DNA from: Magnetospira sp. QH-2 | GTDB taxonomy: Bacteria; Pseudomonadota; Alphaproteobacteria; Rhodospirillales; Magnetospiraceae | Assembly (NCBI RefSeq): GCF_000968135.1 | Contig: NZ_FO538765.1 | Span: 2,864,001 to 2,928,000 of the forward strand | Length of the DNA: 64,000 nucleotides | Direction of reading: 5' to 3' | Made by a program: the position numbers and the translations under genes | The notes under the pieces: model-generated | Told to the model about the DNA's origin: nothing | Databases searched by the model: none | What the model saw: only the letters and a program-made list of their open reading frames with translations | Shown: piece after piece, positions 2,769-49,359 of the stretch | Layout of the letters: each line of letters opens with the position of its first letter | Position numbering within the stretch: the stretch's first letter is position 1

Positions 2769-3800
2769 ATGGAGTATTTTGTTGGAATGGACGTATCGAT
2801 GGCAAGCATTTCGATCTGTGAGATTGATGCAAAGGGAACCGTCATTCGCGAAGGCAAGGTGTCAAGCACACCCGAGGCGGTCGCCACTTGGCTCGAGGAA
2901 AGCGGGCGTGGCTTTGCGCGAATTGGGTTGGAAGCTGGCCCTCTGGCGCCTTGGCTGTACGCAGGACTGTCCAGTCGGGGCCTCCCTGTGATTTGTATCG
3001 AGACCCGGCAAATGAAGGCCTTTGCCAGCGCCAGCCCAGTCAAGACGGACCGTCGCGACGCCCGCTTGATCAGCCAGACGATGCGGACCGGTTTGTACCG
3101 CGCGACCCACGTCAAGACCGCGCGCAGTCAGGAGCTCCGGATGGTGCTGACCCATCGGGAGACCCTGGTTCATCAGGTCCGTCAGTTGTCCAATACGGTA
3201 CGAGGAACATTGAAAGCTTTCGGCCTCAAGGTCGGTATGGCGCGCGGACGCCTTTTCGCGGCGCGGGTTCGGGAATTGACGGCTGATAACCCGCACCTCA
3301 GCGCAGCCGCCGAGCCGCTCTTGCTTGCGCGCCAAGCCTTGCTCGAACAACTCGACAAGCTCGACCGGCAGGTTCATGCCGCTGCGCGCGATGATAGCGT
3401 TTGCCGGCGCCTGATGACCGTTCCCGGCGTCGGCCCGGTTACCGCCCTCGCTTTCAGGACAGGACTCGACGTGCCGGAACGGTTTCAAAAGTCGGTCATG
3501 GTCGGCGCCCACTTCGGGCTTGTCCCACGCAGATACGCCTCGGGAGAGCAGGACCGAAGCGGCCCCATCAGCAAGTGCGGAGATGCCATGGTTCGTTGGC
3601 TTTTGTTCGAGGCCGCCAATGCACTTCTCACTCGAACCCGCCGTTGGTCCTGGCTCAAACACTGGGGGCTCGCGGTCGCCAAAAGGCGCGGGATGAAACG
3701 CGCCAAGGTAGCCGTTGCCCGGCGTCTCGCCGTAATCATGCATCGCATGTGGATCGACGGCACGGACTTCCAGTACCGCAAGGAGGAGACCGCCATCTAA
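2769..3800 (+). CDS. IS110-family transposase
   Basis: A 343-residue DEDD transposase. The N-terminal DEDD_Tnp_IS110 domain shows the first acidic residue in VGMDVSM (Asp8), a Glu in LEAGPLAPWL and the KTDRRDA motif. The C-terminal Transposase_20 domain shows the PGVGPVTAL helix-hairpin-helix-like motif. ATG at 2769 is chosen because GAGGAGACC lies just upstream; a longer frame opens at 2718. The family cuts and joins DNA with a RuvC-like fold and is guided by an element-encoded bridge RNA. The gene looks intact. Confidence 0.92.
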   Translation: MEYFVGMDVSMASISICEIDAKGTVIREGKVSSTPEAVATWLEESGRGFARIGLEAGPLAPWLYAGLSSRGLPVICIETRQMKAFASASPVKTDRRDARLISQTMRTGLYRATHVKTARSQELRMVLTHRETLVHQVRQLSNTVRGTLKAFGLKVGMARGRLFAARVRELTADNPHLSAAAEPLLLARQALLEQLDKLDRQVHAAARDDSVCRRLMTVPGVGPVTALAFRTGLDVPERFQKSVMVGAHFGLVPRRYASGEQDRSGPISKCGDAMVRWLLFEAANALLTRTRRWSWLKHWGLAVAKRRGMKRAKVAVARRLAVIMHRMWIDGTDFQYRKEETAI

Positions 3801-4053
3801 ACACAACGAAAACCGAGATCGCCTGAAGGGCGGCCAGGACGCGTGGCGACGCGCGGGGCTCGGATGACAGCGCGCAGGCTGCAGTGGCGTAAGACCACGC
3901 TTTTCAGATTGCTGCACCCGATCCCCCTTGATCCCCATCATGCGGCGACGACGTCGACCGCGGACAGAAGCAAAGGGCGCCACATAACCCAGGTTCAAAC
4001 CGACGGCTTGGAAATCAGCTTGACTCAAATGACTCGATTACAGAAGCAGCCTG
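3801..4053 (+). other. Non-coding segment after the IS110 transposase (possible bridge RNA region)
   Basis: I see no credible gene here. The stretch is rich in short GC stems, for example GTGG/CCAC around 3882-3897 inside a GCAG/CTGC pair. IS1111-type IS110 elements carry their bridge (seek) RNA at this position. This is inferred from position only; target and donor loops could not be assigned without the element's ends. Confidence 0.3.
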
Positions 4054-5415
4054 TTAGGCCGAACGCCGTGCTTCCGCGCCACCATTCAGATGCCGCTCCG
4101 GGTCCCGCAGGTCGGCCATCATGGTCTTGTGATGGCGGATCACCAGATAGGTCAGCGGCAACAGATGCACCAGCAGCAGCATACCGATCAGAATATCCCC
4201 CAGCGACCAGACGAAGGCCACCGGCAGGAATGGTCCGAGAAAGGAAACGCCGGCGAAGAACCAGCGGTAGGCCTTGACGTTGGTCCCGCCCAGATACTGG
4301 AAACAGCGTTCCGAGAAATAGGCCCAATTGACGATGGTGGTGAAGGCAAAAATGATCAAGGCGATGGTCACGAACAGACGCCCCGGCCCGCCAAGCATTT
4401 CCTCGAATACCGAAACGGTGAGAAAGGCGCCGGTGAGATCCGTCCACATGCCGGTGGTCAGAATCACCAGCCCGGTGGTGGTGCAGACCACCAGGGTATC
4501 CACCAGCGGCACGGCGGCGGCGGTATAGGCCCCCATGGCCGGATGGTCCTTGTTGGCGCCATGCCAGAAAGGCGCGATGCCGATGCCCGATCCGTGCGAG
4601 AACACGCCCCGCGACACACCGTACTGCATAGCCTGCATGACGGCGTAGCCCGCCACGCCGCCCGCCGCTGCATAGGGCTCGAAGGCATAGCGGATGACAT
4701 CCCCGATGGCGGATAGGGTCAGTCCCGGATTGCCCAGCAGGATAAACCAGGCCAGCCCCAAATACCCCAACACCATCCAAGGCGCGGCGGAAATGCTGAA
4801 CTTGAGAATGCTCTTGGCGCCGCCGATGATCACGGCCGCCACGGCGCCGGACAGGGCCAGGGCCACAATCAGGTGCGAGGTCCCCACCTCATCGGCGACC
4901 GCATGGGCCACCGAATTGGCTTGGATCAGATTGGCCGTCACCATGCCCTTGACCATCATCACCGCCGCCAGAACCACGGCGAGGAATCGCCAGGGCTTGG
5001 GCAGCAGGCGTTCCATATAGAGCATGGGGGTGGCGAACAAGTCCGGGCGCTTGCCGTCCCGGGCCAGCTTGACGGCGAAATAGGTCGAGGCGAGACGAAA
5101 GCTCATGCCGAGCAGCGCCGTTACCCACATCCAGAACAAGGCTCCCGGTCCGCCCAGATGCAGCCCGGTGGCCACCCCGGCCAGATTGCCCACGCCAATG
5201 GTTGCCGCCAGGGCGGCCAGGAAGGCCTTGGGGTGGGAGACATGATCGTCGGCGTGATTGGCATCGCCCCGTCCGTGCCAAACCGCGCGCAGACCCCGCT
5301 TCAGATTGCGCAGCACCAAACCACGGGTGACGAACAGGAACAGCAGGCCGATCTCCAGATACAGGAGCGGCAAAAACGGATTCCACAACCAGGTAGAAAT
5401 CGTATCCAACGGCAA
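4054..5415 (-). CDS. Sodium:alanine/glycine symporter (AGCS family)
   Basis: This 453-residue inner-membrane protein has ten or more hydrophobic helices and takes up small neutral amino acids with sodium. Family features are clear: the N-terminal AALAATIGVGNLAGVATG segment, a conserved GPGALFWMWVTALLGM stretch, and SRGVFSHGSGIGIAP, which contains the typical E/H-S-G-x-G-x-AP motif. The apparent start is TTG. It begins 31 nt after the stop of the upstream two-domain APS kinase gene on the same strand, so the two may be co-transcribed. Substrate (Ala, Gly or other) cannot be told. Confidence 0.93.
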   Translation of the reverse strand: MPLDTISTWLWNPFLPLLYLEIGLLFLFVTRGLVLRNLKRGLRAVWHGRGDANHADDHVSHPKAFLAALAATIGVGNLAGVATGLHLGGPGALFWMWVTALLGMSFRLASTYFAVKLARDGKRPDLFATPMLYMERLLPKPWRFLAVVLAAVMMVKGMVTANLIQANSVAHAVADEVGTSHLIVALALSGAVAAVIIGGAKSILKFSISAAPWMVLGYLGLAWFILLGNPGLTLSAIGDVIRYAFEPYAAAGGVAGYAVMQAMQYGVSRGVFSHGSGIGIAPFWHGANKDHPAMGAYTAAAVPLVDTLVVCTTTGLVILTTGMWTDLTGAFLTVSVFEEMLGGPGRLFVTIALIIFAFTTIVNWAYFSERCFQYLGGTNVKAYRWFFAGVSFLGPFLPVAFVWSLGDILIGMLLLVHLLPLTYLVIRHHKTMMADLRDPERHLNGGAEARRSA

Positions 5416-45914: not shown

Positions 45915-46403
45915 ATGGGATCCCTGCGGGCCTGGGCCGAGCAATACCACCCCCATGCGGTCTTCGAGCCCAACACGTCGGCTGTAGGGCCGAGCGCTCG
46001 AAGGCTCTACACCTTCGACCTGACGGCACACCCGACGGCGGCCAACGACACCACCTCCTTCGGCGCGCCGAACAACCTCAACCAGTTGGCGGTGTTTGGG
46101 CCGCGTAGCCTGACCTACGGGACCAATGGCAACCTGACCGGCATCGGCGCCAACGACAATCTGGCCTACGACGTGGAAAACCGCCTGACGCAGTATGCCG
46201 TTACCGGCGGCGTGACCATCGACTATGCCTACGATCCCGCCGGGCGGCGGGCCAGTCGCACCATCGATGGGGTGACGACCCGGTTCCTCTGGTCCGGCGA
46301 GCAGCAGATCGCCGAATACGACGGGTCCGGCACATTGTTGCGCCGCTTCATTCCCGGTCCGGGGCTGGATCAATGGGGTCAGGGATCAATGGGGTCAGAG
46401 TAA
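45915..46403 (+). pseudogene. RHS-repeat protein fragment (C-terminal core part)
   Basis: The frame from about 46005 to 46370 encodes YD/RHS repeats (SLTYGTNGNLTGIGANDNLAYDVENR in part, DYAYDPAGRRASR, GEQQIAEYDGSGTLLRRFIPGPG). It stops being RHS-like at GLDQ, where the repeat motif GGGGTCAG begins. The first ~30 codons (45915-46005) are not RHS-like. It has no intact N- or C-terminus, so it is a remnant of an RHS/toxin gene cut by the island's repeats. Confidence 0.75.
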
Positions 46404-46413
46404 TTTGATTTTT
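46375..46413 (+). repeat. RAYT-associated repeat motif, left copies
   Basis: A partial GGGGTCAGGG (46375-46384) is followed by GGGGTCAGAGTAATTTGATT (46391-46410, then TTT). The same core GGGGTCAGAGTAA recurs in inverted orientation after the transposase (47189-47274) and in direct orientation at 49336-49359. Such sequences accompany REP-associated tyrosine transposases. Confidence 0.75.
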
Positions 46414-46480
46414 CGGAGCTTGGAATGCGAAGGCCAATTTGGCTGAACTCATGTGAAGCGGAGAGGTTTGGAGATATTTG

Positions 46481-47194
46481 ATGGCGAGGCTCTTACGGTT
46501 GAATATTGCGGGAGTACCGCAACACGCCATCCAGCGCGGGAATAACCGGCAGGCGACTTTTTTTCATGATGATGATTATTCAGTCTACCTTGATAAATTG
46601 AAGGACTATGGCGAAAAATATGATGTTGCCATACATGCCTATGTATTGATGACCAACCACGTTCACCTTCTCATGACGCCCGCCCGGGAGACCGGCATCA
46701 GTAAATTGATGCAATCCTTGGGGCGTTATTATGTTCGTTATATCAATCAAACATATCGGCGCTCAGGCACGTTGTGGGAGGGCCGATATAGATCAACATT
46801 GGTTGATAAGGAGGACTATTTCCTGACCGTTAGTCGTTATATCGAACTCAATCCCGTCCGAGCAAACATGGTGCAAGATCCGAAAGATTATCCGTGGTCC
46901 AGCTATCATCACAATGCACTTGATGCTGAAATCGAATTGATAACCGGGCACCCCTGTTACGACGCCCTTGGCCATACTGGCGGGCAAAGACGAAAGGCGT
47001 ATCAGGGACTTTTTAAGGAAGGCATTCCGGATCCAGCGCTGGAGGAGATCCGGTTGAACACCAACAAAGCCTGGGTACTCGGCGGTGATCGCTTCAAGGG
47101 TGAAATCAAAAAAATGACGGACAGGCGTATAGAACCTATTCCCAGAGGTGGGGATCGGAGGTCAAAAAAATATCGGGAGGCGGCAAATGCCTAA
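46481..47194 (+). CDS. REP-associated tyrosine transposase (RAYT, Y1/HUH type)
   Basis: The 237-residue protein is a single-strand DNA nuclease of the IS200/IS605-like Y1 fold that moves or maintains REP-type palindromes. The HUH motif is HVH in MTNHVHLLMTPA. RAYT-typical blocks are QHAIQRGNNRQATFF, RRSGTLWEGRYRST and YIELNPVRANMV, which carries the catalytic Tyr. ATG 46481 is preferred over TTG 46478. Both sides carry its likely repeat substrate. The gene is more AT-rich than the chromosome around it. Confidence 0.92.
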   Translation: MARLLRLNIAGVPQHAIQRGNNRQATFFHDDDYSVYLDKLKDYGEKYDVAIHAYVLMTNHVHLLMTPARETGISKLMQSLGRYYVRYINQTYRRSGTLWEGRYRSTLVDKEDYFLTVSRYIELNPVRANMVQDPKDYPWSSYHHNALDAEIELITGHPCYDALGHTGGQRRKAYQGLFKEGIPDPALEEIRLNTNKAWVLGGDRFKGEIKKMTDRRIEPIPRGGDRRSKKYREAANA

Positions 47195-47274
47195 ATCGAT
47201 TTACTCTGACCCCTTTGATCACTCTGACCCCTTTGATCAGCAAACGCCTAAATCGATTTACTCTGACCCCTTTG
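47189..47274 (-). repeat. RAYT-associated repeats, inverted copies after the transposase
   Basis: Two identical 29-bp units (47189-47217 and 47246-47274; they begin GCCTAAATCGATTTACTCTG) frame a shorter ACTCTGACCCCTTTGATC copy at 47221-47238. They are reverse-complement matches to the GGGGTCAGAGTAA motif at 46391. The first unit begins inside the last codons of the transposase gene. The 47275-47518 stretch that follows has no recognised gene. Confidence 0.8.
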
Positions 47275-47518
47275 GTCCAAACCGGGCCTTCAAAGCTCTT
47301 CAAAGCCGGAATGGGCCGGTTAATGCGGGTGTCCATCTCGCAGAGAGACAGTTGCCGATAGAATAATGGCGGAGGGAAGGCAACTGGGATTTAAGCGTCT
47401 CTGTTCTAAAATTGAGGTGCCGGAACGAGTTAGTGATTTTTCCACATACCACACGGCAGTTTCAACGGACGAACACACCTAAAACAGTGCTCTGGAAGGT
47501 GCCTTTGAAACCAGTTCC

Positions 47519-49066
47519 TCAATATTCAAACAGTGCTTTAAGGTCACTGTAAAATAAGTAATTTGGTGCTTCCACGTGTTCCAGTCCGAAAGTGAAATAG
47601 TGCTTTCTTGCTGCCCGCCATCCCCGAACTAAACTAGGCATGCGTGCTTCGGGAAGAGGTCCATCTCGCCATGCAGCAGTATCCAGCCACTTCCCCGTCG
47701 CGAGTTCAGCATTTGTGGGCGTAGGACAATCTCTTGAAAAGTTCGATGCCAAAATATTGTTCCGCTTAACCATTGCACGCCTGACAATACTGAGCATCCA
47801 ACCATCCAATTGGCGTAGTGTGTCAGGACAATCAAGGAGACAATAGAACCCCATAAGGCCCTTCATACGATTAAGCCTCTTCCCATCATGAATAAAGCTC
47901 GAAAGTTCCTGCTCGGACAATCCGCCATAGAGAGAGCGGCGCAATTCATAAATTAGTCCAAGCAAATCCCAGTCAAAACGGTGGGGGCTTGTTGCCGCTC
48001 TTTCGGAATTGTAGCCATCTTTCAAATAATGAAGCAGATAGAGATTAGTTAGCCGCGAAACTCGGGTCATAATTCTTCGCTCCACTTTTTTTGGTACTGA
48101 CAATCCATCCGGCGAAAAACGATAACCAAGGAAATCAAAATGCGAATAGGTTCTCACCTCCTGTTTTTCGGAGGAGATTATTGCAATCCCTGGTGACTTG
48201 GCTTTGTTAATCTTCAGGCCGCTGTTCTGGCAGTGTTCAATAAAGCAATTTTCGAGTCTTTGAGCCTGTGAATATTCGCTGCAAAGTGCGACAACATCAT
48301 CGGCAAAACGGACAAATTCACCAGCTTCAACAGATAGGGCCACATCAAGGTCGTGGTTGGCCAAATTTGCAAGTAGTAGAGATACAGATGACCCTTGAGG
48401 CGTGCCATTTACCCGCCGTAGAAATATTCCTGCGCTGTATACATCGTACTGGGCAAAACGATGGTGCAGGAACCTATCGAAGATGTGTCGTTCATGCGGC
48501 GTGAGGCTGACTTTCTTTGAATCATTGATCTTATTAGAAAGGTACCAAGAGGGGATGTTATCAAAATACTTCTCAAAATCAATTTGAACCCCAAACAGTT
48601 TGCCATCATGTTCGAAAGCTTTTAGCGCCAATACCGCGTCGAACACGTTTTTATCTGGATGATATGCGTATGATGACGGCGATAGTCTCTTTAGATTTCT
48701 TTCTCTGGTCCGACGTAAAACAACATTTGCGAGTGCAGCGTCAGGAATGGAAAACGCCATAATGCTGCGTTTGCCGCCATCTGGTTTATCGATCAAATAA
48801 TTGATGGCCGGTACCGGTTCATACTCTATGGATTGAACTTTGTGCCATATGGTTTTCGCTAAAAAGTTTGCGTTACGAGCACAATAAGCTGGGTCGAAAT
48901 GCTTGGGTTTAGCAGACGCAGGTTTAGGCTTGGGTATCCCTGCAGGCTTTCCTGTTCGTTTCTTAAACTTCTTCCTATATTTTTCTTCGGCTTTCTCGAT
49001 ACGCGCACGCTTTGCAAACGCTTTTTGAGCGAGTCGTTTAATCTCATTTTTTATGGCATTCTGCAT
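47519..49066 (-). CDS. Reverse transcriptase, unassigned group (defence-type candidate)
   Basis: The 515-residue protein has a Lys-rich N-terminus (1-55). RT motifs follow: KPDGGKRSIMAFSIPDAAL (94-112), motif A QIDFEKYFDNIPSWYL (161-176), motif B GTPQGSSVSLLLANL (221-235), catalytic RFADDVVAL (253-261), GLKINKAKS (283-291) and DFLGYRF (311-317). A ~185-residue helical C-terminal part has no maturase X or HNH domain. It is not a DGR RT (no SQ motif) and not group II-like (no YADD, no intron domain V seen). It is closest in style to the unknown-group/DRT and Abi RTs linked to phage defence. GGGAGGGATTC precedes the ATG. It is AT-rich relative to its surroundings, suggesting transfer. Confidence 0.9.
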   Translation of the reverse strand: MQNAIKNEIKRLAQKAFAKRARIEKAEEKYRKKFKKRTGKPAGIPKPKPASAKPKHFDPAYCARNANFLAKTIWHKVQSIEYEPVPAINYLIDKPDGGKRSIMAFSIPDAALANVVLRRTRERNLKRLSPSSYAYHPDKNVFDAVLALKAFEHDGKLFGVQIDFEKYFDNIPSWYLSNKINDSKKVSLTPHERHIFDRFLHHRFAQYDVYSAGIFLRRVNGTPQGSSVSLLLANLANHDLDVALSVEAGEFVRFADDVVALCSEYSQAQRLENCFIEHCQNSGLKINKAKSPGIAIISSEKQEVRTYSHFDFLGYRFSPDGLSVPKKVERRIMTRVSRLTNLYLLHYLKDGYNSERAATSPHRFDWDLLGLIYELRRSLYGGLSEQELSSFIHDGKRLNRMKGLMGFYCLLDCPDTLRQLDGWMLSIVRRAMVKRNNILASNFSRDCPTPTNAELATGKWLDTAAWRDGPLPEARMPSLVRGWRAARKHYFTFGLEHVEAPNYLFYSDLKALFEY

Positions 49067-49074
49067 GAATCCCT

Positions 49075-49229
49075 CCCAGTGAGAGGAACGGCAGCGGAAC
49101 TTAAAGTCAGGGATTCCAATAGGTGTAAACCACCCATCGTCGCACTTGTCGTTTCCAATAAATGCGCCATCGGTGCCATGAGCACCCGGTACTTCGCCCC
49201 GCTGCCTCGGCTACTTCGCCTCTGCGCTA
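49075..49229 (-). ncRNA. Predicted structured RNA upstream of the reverse transcriptase
   Basis: On the RT-coding strand, GGCAGCGGGG (complement of 49197-49206) pairs with TTCCGCTGCC (complement of 49090-49099): eight Watson-Crick and two G-U pairs. The closing stem encloses about 97 nt. Inside are three hairpins: GGTGC/GCACC (49172-49186), CGCATTT/AAGTGCG (49141-49166, one G-U) and GGTG/CACC (49122-49134). The structure ends just before the RT Shine-Dalgarno. Retrons and several DRT systems keep their partner RNA at this place. Found by eye; extents are approximate. Confidence 0.5.
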
Positions 49230-49258
49230 TTTTTAGCAATACTCGAATGACACGTCAA
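49230..49258 (-). promoter_or_regulatory. Putative sigma70 promoter for the RT/ncRNA unit
   Basis: On the minus strand, a -35 box TTGACG (complement of 49253-49258) and a -10-like TAAAAA (complement of 49230-49235) are separated by 17 bp. Transcription would start near 49222, just ahead of the predicted RNA structure. Confidence 0.45.
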
Positions 49259-49335
49259 TCAAGCCGCATGGAATATCAAGCGGGCTTTACATTTCATCAT
49301 TTTCAATTTTTTTATAACGCTAGCGATCAATCAAA

Positions 49336-49359
49336 GGGGTCAGAGTAAGTTGATTTTTT
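49336..49359 (+). repeat. RAYT-associated repeat motif, right copy
   Basis: GGGGTCAGAGTAAGTTGATT plus a short T-run matches the motif at 46391-46413 in the same orientation. It marks the right edge of the RAYT/RT segment: RHS coding sequence resumes immediately after it. Confidence 0.75.

What the first reader, a model, noticed from the sequence alone, without database searches (positions are those of the whole stretch)
47519..49229. Reverse transcriptase with an upstream structured RNA: candidate RT-based defence system
Seen: a 515-residue RT with FADD and GTPQGSSVSLLLANL motifs and a ~185-residue C-terminal extension of unknown type. Directly upstream on the transcribed strand, a 10-bp closing stem (49197-49206 with 49090-49099) encloses three hairpins and is preceded by TTGACG-N17-TAAAAA. 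Known: retrons and several defence-associated RTs (DRT2, DRT9) use an adjacent non-coding RNA as template. Inference: this is an RT plus template-RNA unit, possibly of an undescribed group, on a mobile island.
Basis: partly seen in the sequence, partly recalled or inferred. Interest (0 to 1): 0.85.

Follow-up and report, generated by a model that had tools for sequence, protein, structure and literature searches.

The report
DRT9-family reverse transcriptase, altered RNA template
This is a bacterial anti-virus enzyme of the known DRT9 family with its own guide RNA, but the short RNA stretch it is expected to copy no longer has the four-U run reported as universal for the family, so its relatives probably write a different repetitive DNA.

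Summary
In detail: a 515-residue RT (47519-49066, minus strand) preceded by a promoter and a structured RNA (49089-49221). It is not an undescribed RT group. The RT is UG28/DRT9 over its full length (PADLOC Drt9 E 7e-161; AF2 model matches the DRT9 cryo-EM structures at TM 0.79-0.87). The RNA is real: 20 relatives keep it directly upstream of the RT, with 92.8% of pair cells paired and 155 double-sided changes (0/500 shuffles). What is new is the RNA type. It belongs to an alphaproteobacterial clade (support 100/99). A covariance model of it does not find E. coli-type DRT9 RNAs, nor the reverse. At the template position the published 'universally conserved' UUUU is absent in 20/20; it is present in 6/6 E. 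coli-clade loci. The window reads CUUUAA. Twelve of 18 alignable relatives read CUCU; Zymomonas reads GAUUAGAUUAG. Best reading: a protein-primed, RNA-templated DRT9-like abortive system whose template was rewritten. The window itself may still make dA-rich DNA; most relatives are predicted to make (AG)n or other short repeats. The product was not tested. Prophage carriage and RT-associated SbcB (ExoI) neighbours in two relatives support a defence role. New variant of a known kind.

The parts
47519..49066 (-). UG28/DRT9-family reverse transcriptase, 515 aa
48296..48307 (-). catalytic FADD motif, residues 254-257
47558..47560 (-). Tyr503, the nearly invariant C-terminal tyrosine (PxYxxY; Tyr506 at 47549-47551, terminal Tyr515 at 47522-47524): candidate primer by analogy with Y496/Y498 of E. 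coli DRT9
   Evidence: role inferred from PMC12483538 and PMC12489045
49089..49221 (-). structured non-coding RNA, 133 nt modelled
49196..49206 (-). closing stem, 5' arm (pairs with 49090-49100)
49090..49100 (-). closing stem, 3' arm
49209..49220 (-). 5' hairpin SL1
49167..49189 (-). hairpin SL2
49141..49166 (-). hairpin SL3
49117..49139 (-). hairpin SL4, just upstream of the template loop
49101..49112 (-). putative template loop CCCUGACUUUAA (UUU at 49105-49103)
   Evidence: template role inferred from position equivalent to CUUAC-UUUU of E. coli DRT9
49230..49258 (-). promoter-like TTGACG-N17-TAAAAA
49330..49358 (.). copy of a 29-nt repeat next to the unit (other copies at 46385-46413 and, inverted, 47193-47223 and 47250-47278)
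46478..47194 (+). REP-associated tyrosine (Y1) transposase flanked by the same repeats; possible mover, not shown

Best explanation
The locus encodes a two-part defence system of the UG28/DRT9 family. Shown here: a full-length DRT9-type RT with C-terminal tyrosines, and directly upstream a covariation-supported RNA with its own promoter, of a clade-specific type lacking the UUUU template. Inferred: the RNA scaffolds the RT complex and offers the loop CCCU(G/U)AC-U-N-U-N to the active site. DNA synthesis starts on a C-terminal tyrosine, copies the few bases after 'AC' and resets again and again, giving long single-stranded repetitive DNA attached to the protein. Because the tract is rewritten in this clade, most members should make (AG)n or other short repeats; the window copy (CUUUAA) should make dA-rich or poly-dA DNA. 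In infected cells the DNA builds up and the cell dies (abortive infection). In uninfected cells a 3'-to-5' single-strand exonuclease should remove it; the window host has no ExoI, so another nuclease would have to.
For: UG28/DRT9: PADLOC Drt9 534 bits over residues 1-506 versus 74 for UG17 and 109 for the general RT model; AF2 model pLDDT 85.8, top six PDB hits all DRT9, TM 0.79-0.87, DRT2 0.45/0.53. RNA: 9 sequences, 95.3% paired, 46 double changes; 20 sequences, 155 double changes, 0/500 shuffles, slid versions 33-52%. The model finds the RNA just upstream of the RT in all 20 loci searched, 11 of them not used in training, and adds no further strong match in 80 viral contigs chosen by a 16-nt seed of its 5' end. 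Template tract: UUUU absent at the aligned place in 20/20 and absent from the whole RNA in 15/20, versus UUUU in six E. coli-clade loci. On the RT tree the first U never changes while position 2 changes 4 times and position 4 changes 6 times in the window clade. Tyr503 is at least 90% conserved. Published mechanism of DRT9, DRT10 and DRT3a: PMC12483538, PMC12489045, PMC12632851, PMC13174585. RT-associated SbcB next to the RT in two relatives.
Against: No RNA, cDNA or phage data. The window's own tract keeps UUU, so its product may not differ from poly-dA. A-B-A' repeats of at least 2 nt were found in 14 of 18 tracts but not in the window, L060, L011 or L071, and with loops this short such repeats are not strong evidence. 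The A7 alignment was fitted to the model, which favours the structure. Y25, which stacks on the template loop in E. coli DRT9, is not kept at the aligned position.
Confidence: 0.72

Rival explanations
1. Ordinary DRT9: the clade still makes poly-dA, the window from UUU and the relatives from the single conserved U's or by misincorporation; the template change has no effect on the product class.
For: The window, L060, L011 and L007 keep UUU; first U invariant and third U nearly so; the fold is DRT9.
Against: In E. coli/Salmonella DRT9 deleting one U of four abolished defence and U4>A4 switched the product to poly-dT (PMC12483538), so the tract dictates the product; most relatives have a C between the two U's.
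Confidence: 0.25
2. The RNA is only a scaffold and the RT makes untemplated DNA, as AbiK and other class 1 RTs do.
For: The bases after the conserved ACU vary freely.
Against: The loop sits at the place of the DRT9 and DRT10 templates, and the flanking CCCU(G/U)AC is invariant in 18 aligned members; the RT is class 2 by profile and fold.
Confidence: 0.08
3. The upstream RNA is a cis-acting control element (attenuator or riboswitch) of the RT mRNA and not a partner of the RT.
For: It lies in the 5' leader of the RT with one promoter; in the window the RT start is only 22 nt downstream of the modelled RNA and no terminator hairpin separates them.
Against: All characterised DRT9 RTs bind such an RNA; the RNA and RT occur together in every RNA found with confidence.
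Confidence: 0.05
4. Retron, group II intron or DGR RT.
For: Weak profile similarity to the group II intron RT model, 124.6 bits against a cut-off of 300.
Against: No Rfam hit to an intron or retron RNA, no maturase domain in Pfam, placement with DRT9.
Confidence: 0.01

Closest known systems
DRT9 (UG28) of E. coli and Salmonella (PDB 9ioa, 9nlv, 9vma; PMC12483538, PMC12489045)
   Same: Full-length RT fold including the N-terminal helix, ADD catalytic core, C-terminal tyrosines, single RT gene with the RNA directly upstream, closing stem with internal hairpins, CU(U/G)AC before the template site
   Different: About 31% RT identity; RNA not recognised by the other clade's model in either direction; no UUUU; no terminator hairpin SL6 after the RNA; Y25 not kept
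DRT10 (UG17; PMC12632851)
   Same: Short RNA template read repeatedly; tracts with repeat units in many relatives (CUCU; GAUUAGAUUAG in Zymomonas)
   Different: RT is not UG17 by profile; no conserved SLATT neighbour in the window clade
DRT3a (PMC13174585)
   Same: Dinucleotide template (ACACAC) giving a dinucleotide repeat, as predicted here for CUCU
   Different: Two-RT system; profile score far lower
RTasSbcB and RTasSLATT of PADLOC's DRT set
   Same: Found beside L011 and L028 (SbcB) and beside L036 (SLATT)
   Different: Not present beside the window RT; association itself was already catalogued

Membership tests
DRT9 / UG28 | RT belongs to UG28 by profile and tree | tested here: met
   PADLOC Drt9 E 7e-161 full length; groups with DRT9 rows, 100/100 against group II-like outgroups
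DRT9 / UG28 | DRT9 fold with N-terminal helical extension and C-terminal extension | tested here: met
   AF2 plus Foldseek, TM 0.79-0.87 over 510-522 columns; the alignment contained one E. coli-clade sequence (L029)
DRT9 / UG28 | structured RNA immediately upstream of the RT | tested here: met
DRT9 / UG28 | RNA of the E. coli/Salmonella type | tested here: not met
   Model R2 from five such RNAs finds none in the window clade at E<=0.5; R1 does not find theirs. The published model itself was not available
DRT9 / UG28 | universally conserved poly-U (UUUU) template | tested here: not met
   0 of 20 in the window clade set; window has UUU
DRT9 / UG28 | C-terminal priming tyrosines | tested here: met
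   Tyr503 and Tyr506, terminal Tyr515; priming itself not tested
DRT9 / UG28 | Y25 of the N-terminal helix stacking on the template loop | tested here: not met
   Aligned residue is Ile23; a conserved Tyr30 lies nearby and may serve
DRT9 / UG28 | product removed by ExoI in uninfected cells | tested here: inconclusive
   Host genome has no ExoI; 2 of 23 other host genomes do, both next to the RT; base rate 3 of 36
DRT9 / UG28 | poly-dA product, hexamer, phage-triggered abortive infection | not testable with these tools
   needs experiments
DRT10 / UG17 | UG17 RT | tested here: not met
   74 bits versus 534 for Drt9
DRT10 / UG17 | SLATT partner gene | tested here: not met
   no conserved neighbour in the window clade
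DRT10 / UG17 | A-B-A' template repeat | tested here: inconclusive
   not in the window; present in 14 of 18 tracts, loops too short for a strong test
Group II intron RT / retron / DGR | intron RNA, maturase domain, msr-msd RNA or template repeats | tested here: not met

The most novel reading that the evidence does not exclude
Within one RT family the template tract has been rewritten several times, so that homopolymer synthesis is only one option: the alphaproteobacterial DRT9 clade writes dinucleotide (AG)n or other tandem-repeat DNA by telomerase-like resetting, and poly-dA is not the conserved working principle of DRT9 immunity.
Probability: 0.45. Interest if true: 0.75.

Novelty: new variant of a known kind. 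Interest (0 to 1): 0.57.

Why it matters
The DRT9 papers rest on a template called universally conserved, yet the published RNA model covered 201 systems while 438 homologues were counted (PMC12483538). Here a well-supported clade with a different RNA and a rewritten template is described. If its members make other repeats, the toxic principle is repetitive single-stranded DNA in general and not poly-dA, and nature has already run the template-swap experiment. It also gives a link between DRT9 and the tandem-repeat systems DRT10 and DRT3a.

Tried and rejected
Rfam scan of the locus: nothing relevant. Phage records: no relative. Plasmids: only Thioclava and Hymenobacter UG28 relatives. Viral scan for the deep SLATT group: none. 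A DNA seed of the RNA's 5' end in viral contigs gave mostly chance matches; only two strong covariance-model hits, both contigs already known. Idea that the closing-stem region is a transcription terminator: rejected, no U run and the RT starts 22 nt downstream. Idea that the window is DRT10: rejected by profile. Thioclava L036 was first taken for DRT10 because of its SLATT gene; the profile shows UG28. Mestre 2022 (the UG classification) is not held in the library, so whether the authors noted this sub-clade could not be checked.

Full report
OBSERVATION. The RT ORF, its motifs, the upstream promoter-like sequence and the closing stem are at the stated coordinates. The RNA folds better than all 200 shuffles (z -3.57).

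WHAT THE RT IS. PADLOC's Drt9 model (UG28) covers residues 1-506 with 534 bits; the next UG model is UG17 with 74 bits. The best PDB sequence hit is the DRT9 RT. An AlphaFold2 model from 13 aligned sequences (pLDDT 85.8, pTM 0.78) matches all six DRT9 entries first (TM 0.79-0.87 over the whole length) and then group II intron RTs and DRT2 at clearly lower scores. The C-terminal part called 'unknown' is the DRT9 thumb and C-terminal extension. So the RT is a family member, about 31% identical to the E. coli protein.

ITS CLADE. Homologues came from GTDB genomes, viral contigs, plasmids and E. coli genomes. In the tree the E. coli-type RTs form one clade (100/100, seven rows). The window falls in another (100/99, 22 rows), which is mostly Rhodobacterales with Mesorhizobium, Sandarakinorhabdus and Zymomonas. 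Bradyrhizobium L019 is its weakly supported neighbour (89/44). Rows L017, L068, L036, L076 and L020 lie apart; L017, L036 and L068 share a downstream gene, which in L036 is a SLATT_5 gene.

THE RNA. A covariance model of nine window-clade RNAs (133 positions, 42 pairs) finds the RNA just upstream of the RT in all 20 loci searched (19 clade loci and L019), eleven of them not used for building. On the 20-sequence alignment 92.8% of cells pair, 34 of 42 pairs show a change on both sides, and none of 500 shuffles or six slid versions comes near; the unfitted nine-sequence MAFFT alignment gives the same picture. The alignment was fitted to the model and leans towards it. A TTGAC box lies 35-38 nt upstream of the RNA in 18 of 20. 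The model does not find the E. coli-type RNAs, and a model of five E. coli-type RNAs does not find this clade. The published 201-system model could not be run here.

THE TEMPLATE. In E. coli/Salmonella DRT9 the RNA carries CUUAC-UUUU; UUUU templates poly-dA, deletion of one U abolishes defence, and U4>A4 switches the product to poly-dT (PMC12483538, PMC12489045). All six E. coli-clade RNAs fetched here have UUUU at that place. In the window clade the same place, between the last hairpin and the 3' arm of the closing stem, reads CCCU(G/U)AC-U-N-U-N-N|stem. In 18 aligned members CCCU, A, C and the first U are invariant; position 2 is C in 12, U in 5, A in 1; position 3 is U in 17; positions 4 and 5 vary. 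On the RT tree position 1 never changes, position 2 changes four times, position 3 once, position 4 six times. UUUU is absent from the tract in 20/20 and from the entire RNA in 15/20; in the other five the U run lies elsewhere in the RNA, away from the tract. The window has UUU. Zymomonas L016 has GAUUAGAUUAG; Thioclava L036, outside the clade, has CUUAGAUUAUC; both hold UUA-GA-UUA, an A-B-A' repeat as in DRT10 (PMC12632851).

MECHANISM (inferred). By family knowledge: RT-RNA complex, tyrosine-primed synthesis from C-terminal tyrosines (Tyr503 nearly invariant), repeated copying of the few bases after AC, long protein-linked single-stranded DNA, abortive infection. For CUCU members the copy can reset by two bases, giving (AG)n; for UUU members such as the window, dA-rich DNA. 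The conserved first and third U with a free base between them fits a two-base reset, but a protein contact would look the same. Shown: family, RNA, conservation, tract change. Not shown: RNA binding, product, priming, defence.

SILENCER. ExoI keeps DRT9 harmless in E. coli (PMC12483538). The window genome has no ExoI. Of 23 other DRT9-bearing alphaproteobacterial genomes two have one, and in both it lies beside the RT: 37 nt downstream on the same strand in L011/L084, and about 1.7 kb away on the opposite strand in L028/L083. Both score as PADLOC's RTasSbcB (467 and 392 bits), so the association was catalogued before; the published ExoI result suggests its meaning. Base rate of ExoI in the class: 3 of 36. 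Most hosts, the window's included, must use another nuclease, which is an open question.

CONTEXT. In L030 (with L002, L034 as near copies) the RT sits between phage tail genes (tail terminator, minor tail, tape measure), and in L009 next to a terminase-like gene, so several relatives are prophage cargo. In the window the unit is bracketed by copies of ACTCTGACCCCTTTG, five in 64 kb and all here (chance 0.11), the same repeat that flanks a REP-associated tyrosine transposase. Movement by that transposase is possible, not shown.

VERDICT. Ordinary in family, unusual in template. It fails one published defining feature of DRT9 (UUUU) and the E. coli-type RNA model, so it is filed as a divergent subtype of UG28/DRT9, working like DRT9 with a product to be determined.

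Noticed in passing
L084:8657-10027 and L083:9119-10528: SbcB/ExoI genes (PADLOC RTasSbcB) beside window-clade DRT9 in the only two of 23 other host genomes that have ExoI at all.
   Followed up: partly
L030:1-7545 (also L002, L034): DRT9 inserted in the tail gene module of a prophage, a likely anti-competitor cargo gene.
   Followed up: partly
L015:4914-5043 and L010:4909-5027: In two Rhodobacterales MAGs (DOLJORAL78, DOLZORAL124) the RNA is fused to the RT coding region with the template loop and start codon missing, at different junctions; assembly error or real deletion.
   Followed up: no
L016:4871-4993 with RT from 5001: Zymomonas copy has a frameshifted RT but a template loop GAUUAGAUUAG, a clean 5-nt tandem repeat.
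   Followed up: partly
window 46385-46413, 47193-47278, 49330-49358: Repeat ACTCTGACCCCTTTG brackets both a REP-associated tyrosine transposase and the DRT9 unit; YD-repeat (RHS) fragments lie on both sides.
   Followed up: partly
L036:3399-5526 (Thioclava plasmid p3): UG28 RT with an adjoining SLATT_5 gene and an RNA whose loop holds UUAGAUUA; RNA not found by either model.
   Followed up: partly
L003:2866-4716: KAP-type NTPase matching PADLOC candidate PDC-S49 upstream of a window-clade DRT9 in Ruegeria.
   Followed up: no
L083:10699-13695 and 3012-4961: DrmD/SNF2-like helicase and a PDC-M33A-like protein around DRT9 in G240, a probable defence island.
   Followed up: no
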